A DNA stretch of 44,405 nt from Anaerolineales bacterium (GTDB taxonomy: Bacteria; Chloroflexota; Anaerolineae; Anaerolineales; Villigracilaceae), in the NCBI GenBank assembly GCA_919902735.1, contig CAKKRM010000154.1, forward strand, positions 1-44,405, given 5' to 3'. A program made the translations under genes and the position numbers. Below, in pieces: positions 3,035-36,511 of this stretch. How positions within the stretch are numbered: the first letter of the stretch is position 1; the number at the start of each line of letters is the position of its first letter. The notes under the pieces were generated by a model, which was not told the origin of the DNA, did not search any database, and saw nothing but the letters and a program-made list of their open reading frames with translations.

Positions 3035-4150
<1,116 letters not shown>

Positions 4151-4152
4151 CC

Positions 4153-5076
4153 ATGCTTAAGCGACTTCGTGAAAGTAAAGCTGCACAAGGAACATTGCTG
4201 GCGCTGCCGACTACGTTCTGGTTGTTTTTCCTGCTGATCATCCCTTTGTTTCTCACGCTTGTTATAAGTTTCGGCAAACGCAGCCCGGACGGCGACGTGA
4301 TCTACACGTTCTCTCTGGATAATTACACCCGTTTGTTTGGCTATAGCACAGACTGCCCCGATGGACAGTCATCGTGTTTCGATCCGTTGTATGTGCAGAT
4401 CCTTGGGCGTTCTTTGACTCTGGCTTTCAATACAACAGCGCTGGTCATTGGTATGGCGTACCCTCTTGCTTATTTTATTGCGCGCGCGCATCCTAAAAAG
4501 CGCAACCTGTTTTTGTTCCTGGTGCTGATTCCTTTGTGGACGAATTTTGTTATCCGCGTGTACGCATGGATGATGCTGCTCCGCAAGGAGGGCGCGATCA
4601 ATATCATCATTGGCGCGCTGGCGAATATGCTGCATATTCCGTTTACGCCTTTTGAAATGCTGTACACTCCGGGCGCGGTGCTGGTGGGGATGGTGTATGA
4701 GTTTTTGCCCTTCATGATCCTGCCGATCTATACGTCGCTTGAAAAAATAGACATATCCCTCTATGAAGCCGCCGCGGATTTGGGCGCGAACGCAGTCAAG
4801 ACCTTCCTGCGTGTCACGCTTCCGCTTTCGATGCCGGGTGTGGTTGCAGGGACGATCCTCGTCTTTATCCCTGTGATGGGAACCTTTATCGTGTCTGATA
4901 TTCTGGGCGGGCGTCAGGTGATTTTAGTGGGCAACTTGATCCAACGTCAATTTCTCGATGCGCGTGACCCGACTTTTGGTTCCGCTGCTTCCCTGATCTT
5001 GATGGTGATGACGCTGGTCGTCACATATTTCTACACCCGCAAATTCGGCTTCGGAGAGGAGATAGTTCCCGCATGA
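4153..5076 (+). CDS. potB: Spermidine/putrescine ABC transporter permease
   Basis: This is an integral membrane permease of 307 aa with about six transmembrane segments. The first is [18 protein letters not shown]. The cytoplasmic EAA loop, [21 protein letters not shown], is the contact site for the ATPase. It starts 2 nt after potA and its stop overlaps the potC start (ATGA), so potABC is one transcript. It pairs with PotC to form the channel. Confidence 0.92.
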
Positions 5077-21858: not shown

Positions 21859-24216
21859 TCAGGTTTCATAGTGGAAAAGCGCCTTTAGATCAGCGGTTGC
21901 GAAATATTTTCGGTACGCGGAAGTTTCATTCAATATCCCGCGCAAAGCTACAAACAACTCAGCCTGCAAGTAGGGATTCTTCTCCTGAGTTTCTTTGGAG
22001 AGCACGACATTGTCATCTTCCATCGTTACAGTTAATTGTCCTGTTGCAGAGAGCCACTCCAGCCCGATCTGTACTGCGCTTTCACGCGCTGCCATTGCCG
22101 CCGCAAGTTCAAGGATGGTTGTCTTGCCCCTGCGTTGGTTTAACACAAACTTACATAATCCCGCCAGATGGGTTAGAAAATCATCAGGTTTTTCTTCCGC
22201 AGGAATTTTTGCAAAGACATACACCGTTTTTGGTTTGACGATCTCCAATATCTTTTGCAAATCGGCTGGGGATGGAGGGGTTGTGTAAATCGAAAGTTCA
22301 TCGGCTTCATGTAATTCGAGGCGCGAGTTGCCCGCGGTTTTGTCGAGACCTTCGGCCCAAATGAGGGTTGAAGGTTGAAGGTTGAAGGTTGAAGGTTGCA
22401 GTCTCAAGTCTCGAATCTCCAATTTCGATTTCCGAACCTCAACAACTTTTTCCTCGACAACGCGGAATTCCTCGAATTGCAAAGTGACTTGTTTCTGTCC
22501 GCGGTAGGTGGAGGCGCGCAGGGAATAGGCAATGTCAAATGTGCTGCCCTCTCTGAGCGAAGCGTTGTCCTGAGCTTGTCGAAGGGTCGAAGAGTCTGGT
22601 AATTCCTCCCCCGCGCCGCCCCACCATAAAATAGACTGCACATTTCCGTCTTCATCTTCGACGTTAATGCGAAGATGTTCTTTGGTCTTGCCAATGGTTG
22701 AGACTGACTTCATTTTGACATTGCGCGTCGCCAGTGTGAGTGACGGATTCCCTGCGCCGAATGGGGCGAGCAGTTCCAATGATTCAGCGAGGGAAATGTC
22801 AATTTCGTGCAGACCAAGCCAGGCGTCGATTTGAAGCGTGGGTTCCTCGAAGACGATTTCGCCAAGCTGTTTTTCAATCGCTCTGCCCAGTCCGCGCCGA
22901 AACTCAGTCAATTTGTCTGCATCGAATGACATGCCCGCCGCCATGGGATGGCCGCCGAATCCGCGCAGGATTCCTTTTTGCGTGGCGATGGCTTCGGTGA
23001 TGTGCAATCCTTCGACGGAGCGGGCCGAGCCGCGCATGATGCCATCGTCTGACTCGTTTAGTAGAATGGCAGGCTTGTGATAACGGTCAACGAGTTTGTT
23101 GGCAACGATGCCCACCACGCCGCCAGGCCAGCCCGGGTGAGCAAGGATGATGACTGGTTCTTCAAGCAGAGCAGGGTTAGCTTTCAATTGCGCTTCCGCC
23201 GCTTGAAAGACTTGCGAAGTTAACATGCGCCGTTGCATGTTCAAGCCTTCGATTTGTGCGGCTAAAACCCTTGCGCGCGCCGAGTCTTGTGTAAGCAATA
23301 ATTCAACCGCGGGGTTTGCATCGCCCAGCCTGCCGAGCGCGTTCAAACGCGGCGCAAAGGTGAAGCCGATGGTTTCTTCGGTGAGTGTGTCGAGCGCTGC
23401 GCCCGCCAGGTCTGCCATCACTTTCAGCCCAAGCCGATTTGTGTTTCGCAGGGCTTGAATTCCTTTTTGCGCAAGCGAGCGGGTTTCGCCTTTGAGCAGG
23501 GCCACGTCGGCGATGAGGCCAAGGGCGACGAGGTCAAGTAATTCTTCAGACGACAGACGATGGACAATGGGCGACTCGTGGTCATTTGTCCGTGGTCCAT
23601 TGTCTAATAACGCCTCCGCCAGTTTGTACGCCACACCCACACCCGCCAAATTCGCAAGTAGATGTTCTTTGGGTAACAACTTTGGATTGACGATGGCTTT
23701 TGCATTCGGAAGCGTCTCACCCAAATCATGATGGTCGGTGACGATCACATCCACGCCGCGCGAGTTGGCGTAGTCGATGGCTTCGTGGGCGGTGATGCCT
23801 GTGTCGCAGGTCAGGATCAATTTCGCGCCGTTATCAAGGATCGGCTTCAGCGAATCTATGTGAACGCCGTGGCTTTCCTTCCCGCGGATGGGGATGTAGT
23901 AAATAACATTCGCGCCCAAAGCCCGCAGGGTTTGCACCAGCAACGCCGTGGAGGTTTGGCCGTCTACATCGAAGTCACCCCACACACAGATTTTATCTCC
24001 TTTGTGTATCGCCGCCTGGAGGATGTCCACTGCTTTTTCGATTTCAGGAAATGGAGTGGATGGATTCGTGTCGGGATGTAAAAACGCCTCCGCATCTTCG
24101 GGACGGTTGATCCCGCGTCGGAGGAGAGTCTGCGCGATGAGGGGGGGGAGATTCAGCGATGCAAGCGAATCGAGCGAGCCAACGGGTACGGGATGAGGAT
24201 CGAGCCAGCGAGTCAT
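21859..24216 (-). CDS. recJ: Single-stranded-DNA exonuclease RecJ with repeat-derived insertions
   Basis: RecJ degrades single-stranded DNA 5' to 3' in mismatch repair and recombination. The protein has 785 aa, longer than typical (about 550-600). Motifs are WGDFDVDGQTS (79-89), TCDTGIT, the DHH motif VTDHHDLG (159-166), FAPRLNALGR, the DHHA1 part GGVVGIVANKLVDRYHKP and RGFGGHPMAAG (418-428), and an OB-fold region around 500-590. Three segments look foreign and are encoded by intergenic-type repeats: residues 205-225, 542-558 and 594-619. A low-similarity C-terminal domain (about 620-785) follows. All three insertions keep the frame and spare the catalytic motifs, so the enzyme may be functional. 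Confidence 0.9.
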   Translation of the reverse strand: MTRWLDPHPVPVGSLDSLASLNLPPLIAQTLLRRGINRPEDAEAFLHPDTNPSTPFPEIEKAVDILQAAIHKGDKICVWGDFDVDGQTSTALLVQTLRALGANVIYYIPIRGKESHGVHIDSLKPILDNGAKLILTCDTGITAHEAIDYANSRGVDVIVTDHHDLGETLPNAKAIVNPKLLPKEHLLANLAGVGVAYKLAEALLDNGPRTNDHESPIVHRLSSEELLDLVALGLIADVALLKGETRSLAQKGIQALRNTNRLGLKVMADLAGAALDTLTEETIGFTFAPRLNALGRLGDANPAVELLLTQDSARARVLAAQIEGLNMQRRMLTSQVFQAAEAQLKANPALLEEPVIILAHPGWPGGVVGIVANKLVDRYHKPAILLNESDDGIMRGSARSVEGLHITEAIATQKGILRGFGGHPMAAGMSFDADKLTEFRRGLGRAIEKQLGEIVFEEPTLQIDAWLGLHEIDISLAESLELLAPFGAGNPSLTLATRNVKMKSVSTIGKTKEHLRINVEDEDGNVQSILWWGGAGEELPDSSTLRQAQDNASLREGSTFDIAYSLRASTYRGQKQVTLQFEEFRVVEEKVVEVRKSKLEIRDLRLQPSTFNLQPSTLIWAEGLDKTAGNSRLELHEADELSIYTTPPSPADLQKILEIVKPKTVYVFAKIPAEEKPDDFLTHLAGLCKFVLNQRRGKTTILELAAAMAARESAVQIGLEWLSATGQLTVTMEDDNVVLSKETQEKNPYLQAELFVALRGILNETSAYRKYFATADLKALFHYET
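22367..22401. repeat. Heptanucleotide tandem repeat inside recJ
   Basis: Four perfect GTTGAAG units and a fifth GTTGCAG unit lie in the coding sequence. On the coding strand they give the 7-residue peptide repeat LQPSTFN / LQPSTLI (residues about 606-619). Gain or loss of one unit would shift the frame. Confidence 0.85.
22567..22586. repeat. CCCTGAGCTTGTCGAAGGG-type repeat inside recJ
   Basis: This copy (TCCTGAGCTTGTCGAAGGG) matches those at 9590-9609 and 35184-35203 with two changes. It encodes TLRQAQD in RecJ (about 544-550), in a loop between the DHHA1/OB parts. Confidence 0.8.
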
Positions 24217-32510: not shown

Positions 32511-34508
32511 TCAGAGACTTGCGCTACGCGCTTCGATTTCTGCCAGCGTTTCCTGCGCTGATTGCAAATATGGTGAACGCAGGCGCGTGTAAATCTCGAC
32601 GGCGCGGCGGGAGAGGGATAGGGCTTCCTGCAGCGCAAGCTTGAAGCTTGCGGTACTGCCGCTTTGTTTGAGCAGGGCTTTGGCGATGCGGTGACAATCG
32701 CTGGCAATTAACTCCTGACGCCCGACTTTTTCAGCCAGCGCGAGGGCTTCGCGGGCGAGGGACTCGGCTTCTGCCCACTGCTCGCGGTCGAGGGCGAGTT
32801 CCGCCAGGTTGCCTGTAATCTCAGCAACGCCTTCTTTATAGTTATTTTTCTTTGCAATGCGCAGGGCTTCACGGAAATCGCGCTCGGCGGCAGGGTAATC
32901 TTTGTTTGCGTGTTCCGCTTCTGCTAAGTCGTTCAGCGAGATAGCAACATCTAGGCTTTCGGGGGAGATGGAGCGGCGGATTTCCAGCGCTTCACGGTGG
33001 GCGGCGATGGCGGCGGAGTAGTCTTTGTTCAGTTTGTGACCGAGTCCGCGCAGTTGGATGGCAATCGCTTTGTTGCGCGGAGTGCTGTTCTGCCAGTGTT
33101 CGGTGGCGCGGGCGGCGCACGCCAGCACTTCATCGGGTTGGTTGCGGAAGTAATAAATCATCCCTGTGCGAAATGCGTTCCAACCCGCATTCTCTTTATC
33201 ATCGGCAGCGAGGGCGCGCGTTTCGGCTTGTTCTGAAAACCACAACCAATCATCCCATCTGCCTGTGAAGTTGAGAAATTGGTAAAGTTCGCTGGACACG
33301 GTGTGTAAACGATCACTGTCGCCTGTCAGCAAGCGCGGCAGGGCGGCGGAGATAAAGCCCCAATCGGCATCCAGCATTGGGAATTTTTCGTAGTCTTTGC
33401 TTCCGCCACCGTATTGCATGACGAGGGCGTAGGCGCGGTCGGTGAGGGCGTCGCCTGTTTGGGTCACGGCTTCGGGGCGGAGGGTGCGAATGAATTTCGC
33501 TGTCAGCGGGGGTAAAAGGAAAGTGCGAGATTCGAGATTAGAGATTAGGATCGAGCGATCGGTTAAATCTTCGAGGGCAGTTTCGGCTTGTCGTTCGGGC
33601 AGGGCGGTCATGTCTGCGATCCACTGGAGTTTGGCGGGCAGGCTGAAATACGTCAGCGCGGCGAGGACTTTCGTCTCGTCGGCGGTGAAGGTCTCCAGCA
33701 GGTCGCCGAAGATGTATTCGAGCGGGTCGTTTCCTTTGGGGGCTTTGTCAATGAAGGCGCAGGCTTCGGCGATGGTGCGGCACTGCGAGCCTTCGCGCCC
33801 CAACTGTCCCGCGATCCAGCGGATGAAGAGCGGGTTGCCGTGGGTGATGGCATAAAGGGAGTCACGTTCTTGTTGTGATGTGCGATTTAAGCGCGTGTTG
33901 CGTGTTGCGAGTTCATTCACCAGTTGCAGGGCTTCGTCGCGGGCGAGGCGGTCGAGGCGCACGATGCGCGCGTCCACGTCGGTGCGGCGGCGGGAGGTGA
34001 CGATGGCTTTGTTCCCTTCGGGCAGGCGCGAGAGGAATTGGAACAGGCGCGTCCGCTCGTCTTCGGGCAGGGTTTCTAAATTGTCGAAGATGATCAGCGC
34101 CTTCTTGCCCGCCAGCGCGAGGCGCAATTCGTTGGGACGCTCATCGGGCGCGAGTTTTTCGAGTCCGTCTGCGCCCAATTCCTTGCCCAGTTCGTCCAGC
34201 ATGGCGAGGTAGGTTGGGCGGGTGAAGTCGGTCAGTTTGGCTTCGCCGTCCGCGTTCAGTTCGCGCACTTTGGCGGTGATGAAGATTTTGCGCTCGAAGA
34301 GTTCGGCGGGCGCATCATGCGCGGCTTTGATGGCGAGGGCGGTCTTGCCGATGCCGCCAGGTCCGTCAATGAGTGCGCCCCAGGTGCGGGATTCGGAGGA
34401 GAGGGCGGAGGCGATGATTTTGAGTTCGTCCGCGCGTCCGAAGAAGTAGGGTTGGGTGGGGAGGGTGTTGCCTGTGGGCTTGGCAGATTGGAGATTAGAG
34501 ATTGGAGA
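32511..34508 (-). pseudogene. STAND NTPase-TPR part of a split DUF4062 gene
   Basis: The open frame continues from the DUF4062 gene in the same phase after one TAA. It reads TQPYFFGRADELKIIASAL, the P-loop GPGGIGKTALAIKAA, Walker B KKALIIFDNLETLP, NKAIVTSRRR and GNPLFIRWIAGQLG, all typical of NB-ARC/STAND ATPases. TPR-like helical repeats follow (YSAAIAAHREALEIRRS, YPAAERDFREALRIAKKN, WAEAESLAREALALAEK). No ATG lies before the P-loop. The first usable start, a GTG at 34268, would delete the P-loop and leave 585 aa. The part is therefore either silent, a pseudogene, or expressed only when the stop is bypassed. Within it, GSTASFKLALQ (about 32650) and ILISNLESRTF (about 33540) are read from hairpin or heptamer repeats. 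Confidence 0.75.
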
Positions 34509-34541
34509 TTAGAGATTGGAGATTGGAGATTGGGAGTTGGG
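34486..34541. repeat. Heptanucleotide array (GATTGGA/GATTAGA) at the domain junction
   Basis: Seven consecutive 7-nt units, alternating GATTGGA and GATTAGA, plus a degenerate eighth, span the end of the DUF4062 gene. The TAA stop of that gene comes from one GATTAGA unit. Related heptamers occur at 11720-11740, about 22405-22430 and 33527-33550. Confidence 0.9.
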
Positions 34542-34994
34542 ATGTTCGGAGAGATAATGTCCAACAGACGAAGCAACGTTGTTTGCCAGATTGTCGGGGG
34601 TGGTGAAAAATTCAACGGGTTGTTTTTTGACTTTGCTCAAAAAGGCATCGAGTTTGGCTTTCTTATCATGCTCCCAATTTTTTTGATGCCAGATGAAATC
34701 ATCATCAACTATAAATCCAAAGATGGGCTTTCCAAGTTTTTTCGCGTGGTCGAATTCCTGTTCGGTGATGGAGATGTCTTTGCCATCGGGGATATATCCG
34801 TAACGATGGGCGTATATGCCAACGAATAGGTCGCTTTCTTCCACTTCATCCAAACATGCTTTAGTTGAATCTTCAGGGCGCGCACCGAAGGCTTCCATCC
34901 AGATGACGTGCAAGCCTAGCTGTTCCAGCGCGTCATGCGCGGCTTTGCGGTGTTCGATTAGGTCAATGTAAGTGGAGGAGAGGAAGACTTTCAT
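34509..34994 (-). CDS. DUF4062 domain protein (N-terminal part of a STAND protein)
   Basis: The protein has 161 aa. MKVFLSSTYIDLIEHRKAAHDALEQLGLHVIWMEAFGARPEDST, DEVEESDLFVGIYAHRYGYIPDGKDISITEQEFDHAKKLGKPIFGFI and FTTPDNLANNVASSVGHYL match the DUF4062 domain (TIR-like fold), which normally sits in front of a STAND ATPase and repeats. Such proteins are thought to act in signalling or phage defence. The chain ends HPNSQSPISNL inside the heptamer array, and the ATPase part continues in the same frame after the stop. Changing GATTAGA to GATTGGA in that unit would remove the stop. Confidence 0.82.
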   Translation of the reverse strand: MKVFLSSTYIDLIEHRKAAHDALEQLGLHVIWMEAFGARPEDSTKACLDEVEESDLFVGIYAHRYGYIPDGKDISITEQEFDHAKKLGKPIFGFIVDDDFIWHQKNWEHDKKAKLDAFLSKVKKQPVEFFTTPDNLANNVASSVGHYLSEHPNSQSPISNL

Positions 34995-35109
34995 GGAATG
35001 TCATTGTGGGTTTTGGGGCGTACCGTCCACGAATGATTCACGAATGCACGAATTGGCTGATGGTTGTATTCGAATATTCGAGGTCTCATTCGTGGATGGT
35101 TCCTGGTTC

Positions 35110-35214
35110 ATCGTGCGCGGCTTCGCCCCCTACGGGGATGATACGATGCTCGGTCAAGTCAACGTAGGTGGAGCTGAGACGTTGCCCTGAGCCTGTCGAA
35201 GGGAAGATTTTCAT
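35110..35214 (-). pseudogene. Remnant of a second DUF4062 gene with in-frame insertions
   Basis: The minus strand reads MKIF, then PSTGSGQR, then LSSTYVDLTEHR, then IIPVGGE, then AAHD. Removing the two inserts gives MKIFLSSTYVDLTEHR-AAHD, the hallmark start of DUF4062, as in the complete copy 115 nt downstream (MKVFLSSTYIDLIEHRKAAHD). The first insert is exactly 24 nt and is the CCCTGAGCCTGTCGAAGGG repeat (35184-35203). The second contains CCCCGTAGGGG. Homology stops after AAHD. The gene is dead. Confidence 0.8.
35184..35203. repeat. CCCTGAGCCTGTCGAAGGG repeat in the DUF4062 remnant
   Basis: This copy is identical to the one at 9590-9609 over 20 nt. It is inserted between codons 4 and 5 of the DUF4062 start. 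The rest of the gap 34995-35485 holds ATTCGTGGA-type repeats (about 35030-35100) and a GCGAAATACGCGAAATTGGCG-like stretch (35330-35410), with no gene. Confidence 0.85.
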
Positions 35215-35485: not shown

Positions 35486-35513
35486 TTGCGTTCTGTTTTT
35501 CGGGGGGTATAAT
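35486..35513 (+). promoter_or_regulatory. Promoter of the metallophosphoesterase gene
   Basis: A -35 TTGCGT (35486-35491), a 16-nt spacer and a -10 TATAAT (35508-35513) are present. Transcription would start near 35520 and give a leader of about 50 nt with AAAGGA before the GTG start at 35570. Confidence 0.5.
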
Positions 35514-35569
35514 TGACCAATCGTAACCGCACCACCTCTGCAAGCCATCCCACTTTAAAGGATTTGCAT

Positions 35570-36511
35570 GTGACTACAATCTTCTTTGCTACAGACATTC
35601 ACGGTTCGGATATTTGTTGGAGCAAGTTTCTCAATGCGGGGAAGTTCTACGGCGCGGATCAGTTGATCCTCGGCGGCGATATGACGGGCAAGGCGGTGGT
35701 GCCGTTTGTGCATCAGGGCGGCAGTAATTACCGCATCACTTTACTTGAACAGGTGTTTGATACTACGAACGACGACGAACTGCAGGATATTGTCAAACGT
35801 GTCCGCAGCCGTGGTTATTATCCCTACATGACCAACCCAGATGAAATTGCCGAATTGGAACAAAATCCAGACCGTGTCAGCGGGATATTTCTTGCCGAAG
35901 CGCTCAAGGTCGTCCAGCAGTGGATGGACCTGGCGGATAAAAAACTGGAAGGCACCGATATGAAACTCTACTGCTGTCCGGGCAACGATGACATGGATGA
36001 AGTGGACGAGATCGTTCGGGCGAGCCGCAGCGTGGTTCTGGCCGAAGGACAGGTGACTACCCTGAAGAGCGGCCACGAAATGATCGCCTCCGGCTGGAGC
36101 AACAGAACTCCCTGGGATACGCACCGTGAAGAAGACGAGGACCAGCTCAAAGTCAGGTATGAAGCGATGACGTCCCAATTGAAAGACCCGCACAATGCCA
36201 TTTTCAACATCCATGTGCCGCCTTATAAATCCCAACTGGATGAAGCTCCCGAATTGGATAAGGATTTACGTCCCATTTTAGCGGGCAATTCCTTAAAGCC
36301 TGTTGGTTCCACCGCGCTGCGTGAAGCGATAGAAATGACCCAGCCGCTGCTTGGCCTGCATGGGCACATCCACGAAGGACGCGGCGTTTCAAGAATTGGA
36401 AAAACTCTTTGCGTCAACCCGGGTTCCATGTATGAGCAGGGAACTTTGCTTGGCGCAATTGTAAAACTTGGCAGGAAAAAAATCGAAGATTACGTTTTGA
36501 CGACAGGTTAA
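35570..36511 (+). CDS. Calcineurin-like metallophosphoesterase
   Basis: This phosphoesterase (313 aa) has a two-metal site. Motifs run in order: FATDIHGSD (D-x-H), LILGGDMTG (GGD), YCCPGNDDMDE (GND), NIHVPPYKS (His) and LHGHIHEGRG (GHxH). The C-terminal SRIGKTLCVNPGSMYEQG is like other small phosphodiesterases of the YfcE type. The substrate is unknown. The start is the GTG at 35570: AAAGGA lies 7 nt upstream and the conserved domain begins at once. The open frame back to 35513 overlaps the -10 box and is rejected. Confidence 0.85.
   Translation: MTTIFFATDIHGSDICWSKFLNAGKFYGADQLILGGDMTGKAVVPFVHQGGSNYRITLLEQVFDTTNDDELQDIVKRVRSRGYYPYMTNPDEIAELEQNPDRVSGIFLAEALKVVQQWMDLADKKLEGTDMKLYCCPGNDDMDEVDEIVRASRSVVLAEGQVTTLKSGHEMIASGWSNRTPWDTHREEDEDQLKVRYEAMTSQLKDPHNAIFNIHVPPYKSQLDEAPELDKDLRPILAGNSLKPVGSTALREAIEMTQPLLGLHGHIHEGRGVSRIGKTLCVNPGSMYEQGTLLGAIVKLGRKKIEDYVLTTG

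What the first reader, a model, noticed from the sequence alone, without database searches (positions are those of the whole stretch)
32511..34994. DUF4062-STAND-TPR gene split by a stop codon inside a heptamer array
The 161-aa DUF4062 ORF and the ATPase-TPR part are in the same frame, separated only by a TAA that belongs to a GATTAGA unit (34507-34513) of a 7-nt array. No start codon lies before the P-loop. A change of that unit to GATTGGA restores an 827-codon fusion, and a change in unit number shifts the frame. DUF4062-STAND proteins are linked to defence or signalling, where reversible silencing is useful, so this may be an on/off switch.
Basis: partly seen in the sequence, partly recalled or inferred. 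Interest (0 to 1): 0.72.

Follow-up and report, generated by a model that had tools for sequence, protein, structure and literature searches.

The report
Immune-like gene cut in repeat linker
A bacterial gene that looks like an antiviral sensor is cut in two by a stop codon inside a string of 7-letter DNA repeats that forms the hinge between its parts; such repeats are scattered through the genome and sit in this hinge in many relatives, so this looks like a recently broken, possibly revertible copy rather than a proven on/off switch.

Summary
A minus-strand gene (34994-32511) encodes DUF4062 (TIR-like NADase family), a NB-ARC/STAND ATPase and TPRs in one frame, cut only by a TAA at 34509-34511 in a 7.6-copy heptamer array (34480-34533); no ATG/GTG/TTG lies before the P-loop. 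The array is not private to this gene: period 7 is the commonest tandem period in 309 kb sampled (18 of 64 TRF rows; none in five shuffles), mostly between or at the edges of genes. In 25 relatives the linker at this junction has excess 7-nt periodicity and 0 of 39 stop triplets in frame; 17 of 17 full-length DUF4062 copies found beside the core are fused to it. The effector ahead of the STAND-TPR core differs between relatives, sometimes beside a DUF4062 5' relic. One relative (L058) is frameshifted by exactly one extra heptamer at a second site. pN/pS shows no decay. Best reading: a recent null allele made by turnover of a genome-wide heptamer family in a tolerant linker at the effector-swap junction. 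A selected switch is possible but unproven: no reads or strains could be examined.

The parts
34509..34994 (-). DUF4062 (TIR-like) ORF, 161 aa, ended by the TAA in the array
   Evidence: PF13271 6.2e-26; KpSwz match 3.1e-6
32511..34508 (-). In-frame continuation: NB-ARC/STAND ATPase and TPR, 665 codons without another stop and without a common start codon before the P-loop
34480..34533 (.). Heptamer array (coding strand AATCTCC/AATCTCT), the inter-domain linker
   Evidence: TRF period 7, 7.6 copies; 36 BLAST matches in own genome, itself included
34509..34511 (-). The in-frame TAA, inside unit 34507-34513
34341..34364 (-). P-loop GPGGIGKT of the STAND ATPase
33527..33548 (.). Second heptamer-like site (3 units, in frame here); one extra unit and a frameshift at the homologous place in L058
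35086..35214 (-). Relic of a DUF4062 5' end (MKIF..LSSTYVDLTEHR..AAHD..TIHE*) interrupted by short inserts, upstream of the gene
   Evidence: comparison copies

Best explanation
This is a null (OFF) allele of a single-chain, NLR-like conflict protein: a TIR-like NADase effector (DUF4062), a STAND ATPase switch and a TPR sensor. The flexible linker between effector and ATPase is made of a heptamer repeat that is scattered through the genome. Its units come in a stop-free form and a form that makes TAA in one of three phases, and here a stop-bearing unit lies in phase. Translation should therefore end after the effector, and the ATPase-TPR part has no common start codon before its P-loop, so no working sensor should be made. 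The linker is a tolerant place where intergenic-type repeats collect and where the effector domain has been exchanged in relatives. Shown: the split, the repeat, its genome-wide presence, open linkers in relatives, differing effectors on one core, a one-unit frameshift in a relative. Inferred: NADase and defence function, loss of function, recency, and that the lesion is accidental turnover of the repeat rather than a selected switch.
For: Split and array. Genome-wide repeat: 36 BLAST places in the own genome, itself included; 18 of 64 TRF rows of period 7 in 309 kb, none of period 7 in five shuffles; 14 period-7 segments in 58.9 kb outside ORFs against 1-3 at five other lags; exact AATCTCYAATCTCYAATC in 30 of 61 genomes, 25 places in the own one against 3 for the backward control. 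Linker: lag-7 identity 0.42 in 25 relatives against at most 0.34 at other lags and 0.24-0.27 at lag 7 in flanking code; 9 of 25 linkers significant at 0.01 against 1 of 169 control windows; 0 of 39 stop triplets in frame. Stop-bearing units are common: 27 of 59 unit junctions counted in fetched own stretches. One lesion only; pN/pS 0.23-0.42 in 20 comparisons against 0.32-0.38 in 5 intact pairs. Effector exchange: with DUF4062 relics upstream of 4 of 9 membrane-type loci (L012, L043, L055, L060). L058: one extra unit, frameshift, rest open.
Against: No expression, population or read data, so 'null' and 'recent' are inferences. With synonymous distances of 0.3 or more to the compared relatives, pN/pS cannot date a young lesion. 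The gene is otherwise intact and in phase across a seven-base repeat, which a maintained switch would also show. Of four broken copies seen (window, L058, L055, L061) two break at heptamers, about 3% of the gene (P 0.005); without the window, which was chosen for its lesion, 1 of 3 (P 0.09). Most branches of the swap tree are weak (18 of 27 open). Inside ORFs of the own genome period 7 hardly exceeds other lags (3 against 1, 1, 2, 1, 1).
Confidence: 0.57

Rival explanations
1. Contingency locus: slippage and base exchange in the linker array switch an effector-STAND gene off and on in the population, sparing cells the cost of a suicidal NADase.
For: One lesion, both halves in one frame, no sign of decay; a relative frameshifted by exactly one unit at another heptamer site; printed precedents for heptanucleotide tracts inside ORFs with a frame shift in Haemophilus influenzae (PMC2651432, passages).
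Against: The lesion is a base variant, not a unit-number change; the array is short and imperfect (7.6 copies, 89%); similar repeats sit between genes and in the aroA loop; 0 of 25 relatives have an in-frame stop in the linker.
Confidence: 0.2
2. Sequencing, assembly or strain-mixture artefact: the draft genome carries a wrong base or a merged allele in the array.
For: The genome is a draft of 356 contigs, and repeats are prone to merged strain variants.
Against: The array (54 bp) is shorter than ordinary reads; the rest of the 2.5 kb gene is open; two units of the array carry the stop-bearing form.
Confidence: 0.1
3. Ordinary pseudogene on its way out: the gene lost its use and the array is merely where the first lesion fell.
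For: Patchy presence of the core (20 of 152 genomes of the family; 18 of 400 of the order; own included in both); other broken copies exist (L055 deletion, L061 one-base indel).
Against: No second lesion in the window; pN/pS as in intact pairs.
Confidence: 0.1
4. The split is functional: a free DUF4062 NADase and a separately initiated or read-through STAND-TPR partner.
For: The free ORF keeps the whole Pfam domain (2-84 of 161 aa) and both Glu that are invariant in 12 relatives.
Against: No ATG/GTG/TTG/CTG between the TAA and the P-loop; 17 of 17 full-length DUF4062 copies beside the core are fused to it.
Confidence: 0.03

Closest known systems
DUF4062 / Swarozyc (KpSwz), TIR-like NADase antiphage protein (PMC13174449; abstract, section 8 and passages seen)
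   Same: Homologous DUF4062 domain: phmmer 3.1e-6; a profile of 12 relatives matches the KpSwz chain at 9.8e-14 over chain residues 7-157
   Different: KpSwz carries a C-terminal portal-binding AUX domain; here a STAND ATPase and TPRs follow, and the gene is split
Bacterial conflict proteins with exchangeable N-terminal effectors (PMC8195603, passages)
   Same: The passages describe AP-ATPases fused to TPRs and, for TRADD-N proteins, N-terminal domains that vary greatly between close relatives; here the N-terminal part of a NB-ARC-TPR core varies
   Different: That statement is about TRADD-N proteins, not this core; DUF4062 has 0 occurrences in the main text of PMC8195603 and PMC7159879; a repeat-built linker was not in the passages seen
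Heptanucleotide repeats inside ORFs with frame shift in H. influenzae (hmw1A of PittAA, HI1369; PMC2651432, passages)
   Same: Seven-base tandem tract inside an ORF, frame depends on unit number
   Different: There 8-14 units in hmw1A and a TonB-dependent receptor gene; here 7.6 imperfect units in a predicted intracellular sensor, split by a base variant
Genome-wide heptamer repeats of Xanthomonas/Nostoc (PMC4692102, passages) and TAACTGA repeats of Beggiatoaceae (PMC4679880, passages)
   Same: Dispersed heptamer arrays, mainly intergenic; PMC4679880 reports, after Mrazek 2007, that heptanucleotides were the commonest category of long repeats in most genomes
   Different: Other units; here a heptamer array also forms the linker of a protein

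Membership tests
DUF4062 TIR-like NADases (Pfam PF13271) | Match above the curated cut-off | tested here: met
   90.9 bits against 24.7
DUF4062 TIR-like NADases (Pfam PF13271) | Conserved catalytic Glu (E97 in KpSwz; named in the E97A construct of section 8) | tested here: inconclusive
   Two Glu of S[IV]TExE are invariant in 12 of 12 aligned relatives and present in the window; the second aligns with an Ala of the PDB chain, which would fit the E97A construct, but this numbering is my inference
DUF4062 TIR-like NADases (Pfam PF13271) | NAD+ hydrolysis | not testable with these tools
   needs an assay
Swarozyc system | C-terminal AUX portal-binding domain | tested here: not met
   NB-ARC and TPR follow DUF4062; the best stretch of the profile match to the KpSwz chain (326 aa) is residues 7-157
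Swarozyc system | Defence-gene neighbourhood (the paper gives about 20% in predicted islands and over half beside a defence homologue) | tested here: inconclusive
   PADLOC on 10 ORFs including the two halves: a TPR model on the core and a partial match of the next ORF 35513-36511 to candidate PDC-S10 (2.4e-8), nothing else; Pfam names of neighbours are mostly metabolic
STAND NTPase | P-loop NB-ARC/NACHT-type ATPase with repeat sensor | tested here: met
   NB-ARC 29.2 bits against 23.5; GPGGIGKT; TPR_12 62.9 bits against 30.1
Phase-variable (contingency) gene | Tandem repeat inside the ORF whose unit number sets the frame | tested here: met
   one-unit frameshift at the second site in L058
Phase-variable (contingency) gene | Both states within one population, reversible | not testable with these tools
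   no reads and no second strain were at hand
Pseudogene | Several lesions or relaxed selection | tested here: not met
   single TAA; pN/pS as in intact pairs

The most novel reading that the evidence does not exclude
In these Chloroflexota, heptamer arrays act as a hinge maker for modular proteins. Because 7 and 3 share no factor, a stop-free heptamer array reads as the same repeating heptapeptide in all three frames, so it can join an effector and a STAND core from unlike frames, grow and shrink, and give genes a shared landing place for effector exchange. The price is that stop-bearing units and one-unit changes silence the gene from time to time, which selection may use as a low-rate switch for suicidal effectors.
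Probability: 0.15. Interest if true: 0.78.

Novelty: new variant of a known kind. Interest (0 to 1): 0.5.

Why it matters
If the linker is both the effector-swap junction and a repeat-driven weak point, the diversification and the silencing of a bacterial NLR-like family become testable at one short locus. More widely, seven-base repeats that build protein linkers and loops would link a mutational bias (heptamer slippage) to protein evolution.

Tried and rejected
A dedicated switch array: weakened because such repeats are genome-wide and 15 of 29 examined places fall inside ORFs by my simple ORF caller, among them genes with EPSP synthase, TPK, AMP-binding and radical SAM domains. A separately translated STAND-TPR protein: no common start before the P-loop. 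Long-standing pseudogene: no second lesion, pN/pS unchanged. Third heptamer-like site (33893-33913): homologous code in 20 relatives shows no such repeat by eye. The upstream relic as a dispersed element: in a DNA search of 57 genus genomes the listed places (the list was cut) match mostly the short palindrome and the ATTCGTG-like part; the DUF4062 part appears among them only at G003 (beside the gene) and G001. Second site as an inserted repeat: the window and most relatives have equal length there, and some relatives have related non-repeat codons, so the repeat probably grew out of ordinary code.

Arguments I withdraw as evidence of selection: the 0 of 25 in-frame stop triplets in 16 in-gene arrays and the 0 of 22 in the aroA loop are forced, because I chose open ORFs and matched translated text without stops. 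Only the linker count (0 of 39) is free of this, since its relatives were found by the core alone.

Rows dropped: one search left out 5 of 30 relatives (L108, L013, L113, L116, L117) because the core-start pattern did not match; one search shows these five open across the junction. L045 has no sequence upstream and L055 was matched by its downstream piece, so neither gave a linker. Six loci (L189-L194) were not analysed; from frame length and position I take them for copies of ones already used. One search used 25 of 30 AroA loci (pattern misses: L126, L128, L136, L138, L143), and loci were fetched for 30 places only. In the tree I labelled L063 'AlbA'; Pfam in the same turn showed DUF4062 plus HATPase_c_4, so the change counts may be off by about one. 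The stretches lie on contigs met in earlier hits, not on random ones.

Paper searches returned nothing; others returned listings. I make no claim that any of this is absent from print. The AlphaFold model of L041 (12 rows, mean pLDDT 70, pTM 0.44) has the linker (153-177) below pLDDT 50; the region 405-512 is too poor to judge site 2. No fold search was run on it.

Full report
What is there. On the minus strand, 34994-32511 holds a DUF4062 ORF (161 aa), a TAA at 34509-34511, and 665 further codons in the same frame with NB-ARC and TPR matches. The TAA is inside a heptamer array at 34480-34533 (7.6 copies, 89% match). Coding-strand units are mainly AATCTCC and AATCTCT; the second makes TAA in one of three phases. 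Two such units are in the array, one in phase and one out of phase. No ATG, GTG, TTG or CTG lies between the TAA and the P-loop at 34341-34364; the first common start is GTG 34268.

The repeat is not private to this gene. The own genome (4.26 Mb, 356 contigs) gives 36 BLAST places for a 151-base stretch with the array, itself included. In 309 kb (the window plus 14 stretches, on contigs met in earlier hits) TRF lists 64 rows of score 40 or more, 18 of period 7, the commonest period; three Markov and two triplet shuffles list none of period 7. Of the 18, 9 lie between ORFs, 5 at ORF edges and 4 in ORFs. By a lag test on 329 kb, period-7 segments number 14 in 58.9 kb outside ORFs (other lags 1-3) and 3 in 243.6 kb of ORF interior, where other lags give 1, 1, 2, 1 and 1, so the excess inside genes is slight in this sample (outside against inside P 4e-8). 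Controls: same-genus G017 5 outside and 3 inside in 80 kb, same-genus G026 1 and 0 in 80 kb, same-order G057 2 and 1 in 80 kb, same-order G048 0 and 0 in 60 kb, E. coli 0 and 0 in 50 kb. The exact pattern AATCTCYAATCTCYAATC occurs in 30 of 61 genomes, with 25 places in the own genome against 3 for the backward control; in G005 and G035 the control is also high (47 against 74, and 9 against 10), so the pattern alone is not a clean marker there.

The repeat inside other genes. I examined 29 of the 36 places with their context; 15 lie inside an ORF by my simple caller. Ten ORFs with such arrays went to Pfam and nine have a known domain, among them EPSP synthase, TPK, AMP-binding and radical SAM. 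That these arrays hold no in-frame stop (0 of 25 with the RecJ array added) is forced by choosing open ORFs and proves nothing about selection. In EPSP synthase (aroA) one array lies where the two solved homologues shown have gaps. In 25 of 30 AroA loci of the genus whose loop my pattern could cut out, the loop has lag-7 identity 0.56 against at most 0.34 at lags 3-12 and lengths of 15 to 36 aa. L121 has another heptamer (ACCTTCA type) at that place.

The linker in relatives. Relatives of the STAND-TPR core came from genome contigs (26 loci) and from searches of 61, 400 and 152 genomes; 20 of 152 family genomes carry it at E 1e-60, own included, a patchy spread. Record titles name mostly Chloroflexota MAGs (Anaerolineales and kin), with four loci labelled Chlorobaculum or Chlorobiales. 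In 25 relatives with a cut-out linker (5 of 30 dropped by the pattern) lag-7 identity is 0.42 against at most 0.34 at other lags and 0.24-0.27 at lag 7 in flanking code; 0 of 39 stop triplets are in frame, against 1 of 2 in the window (P 1e-7 if phases were free). Nine of 25 linkers are significant at 0.01 against 1 of 169 control windows, so 16 of 25 are not at that level. Five hold a REP-like stretch; that of L043 has 31 matches in its own genome G017, itself included. The rows share ancestry, so these P values are too small. In one search, 17 relatives' loci hold a full-length DUF4062 match beside the core, and in all 17 it lies in the open frame of the core. AlphaFold on L041 gives pLDDT below 50 for the linker (153-177), at modest overall confidence.

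The junction is where effectors differ. Ahead of the same core stand DUF4062, a two-helix membrane segment (my reading of the sequence; L044 has no Pfam match), PNP_UDP_1, DUF4062 plus HATPase_c_4, or short leaders. On a 30-row tree five labels need 8 changes (least possible 4, shuffled mean 12.2); DUF4062 alone needs 5, of which well-supported branches force 2; 18 of 27 inner branches are weak, and the membrane label is hardly more clustered than shuffles (41 of 500 as low). L042 (DUF4062) groups with L044 and L060 (membrane segment) at 98/94; L042 and L044 share ACCAATCACCAATTAC in the linker, L060 with one difference. Relics of the first 21-28 DUF4062 codons lie upstream of 4 of 9 membrane-type loci (L012, L043, L055, L060) and also upstream of the intact DUF4062 genes of L056 (two), L063 and L108 and of the window. 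Replacement in place is my inference from the first four.

Broken copies. Four were seen: the window (TAA in the array); L058, with four AATATCG units where the window has three, a +7 frameshift and the rest open; L055, a deletion of about 23 codons with frameshift; and L061, a frameshift where, by eye, one G of a short run is missing. Two of four at heptamers, about 3% of the gene, gives P 0.005, but the window was chosen for its lesion; without it P is 0.09. L058, L055 and L061 are draft records too, so errors are not excluded. pN/pS of the window core is 0.23-0.42 in 20 comparisons and 0.32-0.38 in five intact pairs: no sign of decay, though a young lesion could not show.

Function. DUF4062 proteins are reported as TIR-like NADases, one of which (KpSwz) gives abortive infection with the phage portal as trigger (PMC13174449, a preprint; abstract, section 8 and passages). 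The window domain matches KpSwz at 3.1e-6, and a profile of 12 relatives at 9.8e-14. So the intact protein is most likely a sensor that unleashes an NADase on a trigger read by the STAND-TPR part; that is inference. It is not Swarozyc proper: NB-ARC and TPR stand in the place of the AUX domain. The neighbours are mostly metabolic by Pfam; one has a partial match to a candidate defence model, PDC-S10.

Verdict. A real split gene, most likely a recent null allele caused by turnover of a dispersed heptamer family in a tolerant linker. A selected on/off switch is not excluded; it has precedents in print (H. influenzae, PMC2651432, passages) and one suggestive relative, but needs reads or strains. 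The more unusual point is that the linker at an effector-exchange junction is often built from the kind of seven-base repeat that is dispersed between genes in this group.

Noticed in passing
window 35086-35214 (-); L060, L055, L043, L012, L056, L063, L108: Short relics of the DUF4062 5' end (about 21-28 codons, several ending AAHD) upstream of the gene, some with inserts. G001:C48 (L168) has two relic-like pieces, and G001 had no match to the core.
   Followed up: partly
window 22362-22398 in the RecJ-like gene 21859-24216 (-): An in-frame heptamer array (ACCTTCA type, 5.3 copies) in a gene with DHH, DHHA1 and RecJ_OB matches, behind the last Pfam domain.
   Followed up: partly
L066 (G000:C153) 3254-4630 and genus homologues L118-L147: EPSP synthase loop with variable, heptamer-periodic code (15-36 aa in 25 of 30 loci cut out), plus a second variable place (FNLQPAT-type) near its C-terminal part in a few.
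   Followed up: partly
G005 (same genus): 74 places of AATCTCYAATCTCYAATC, the most of 61 genomes, but 47 for the backward control too, so another similar heptamer family may abound there.
   Followed up: no
G210:C21:50232-50621 and other G210 places: A repeat similar to the ATTCGTG-like part of the window's 35000-35214 region occurs three times in a row at even spacing on G210:C21 and on other contigs of G210.
   Followed up: no
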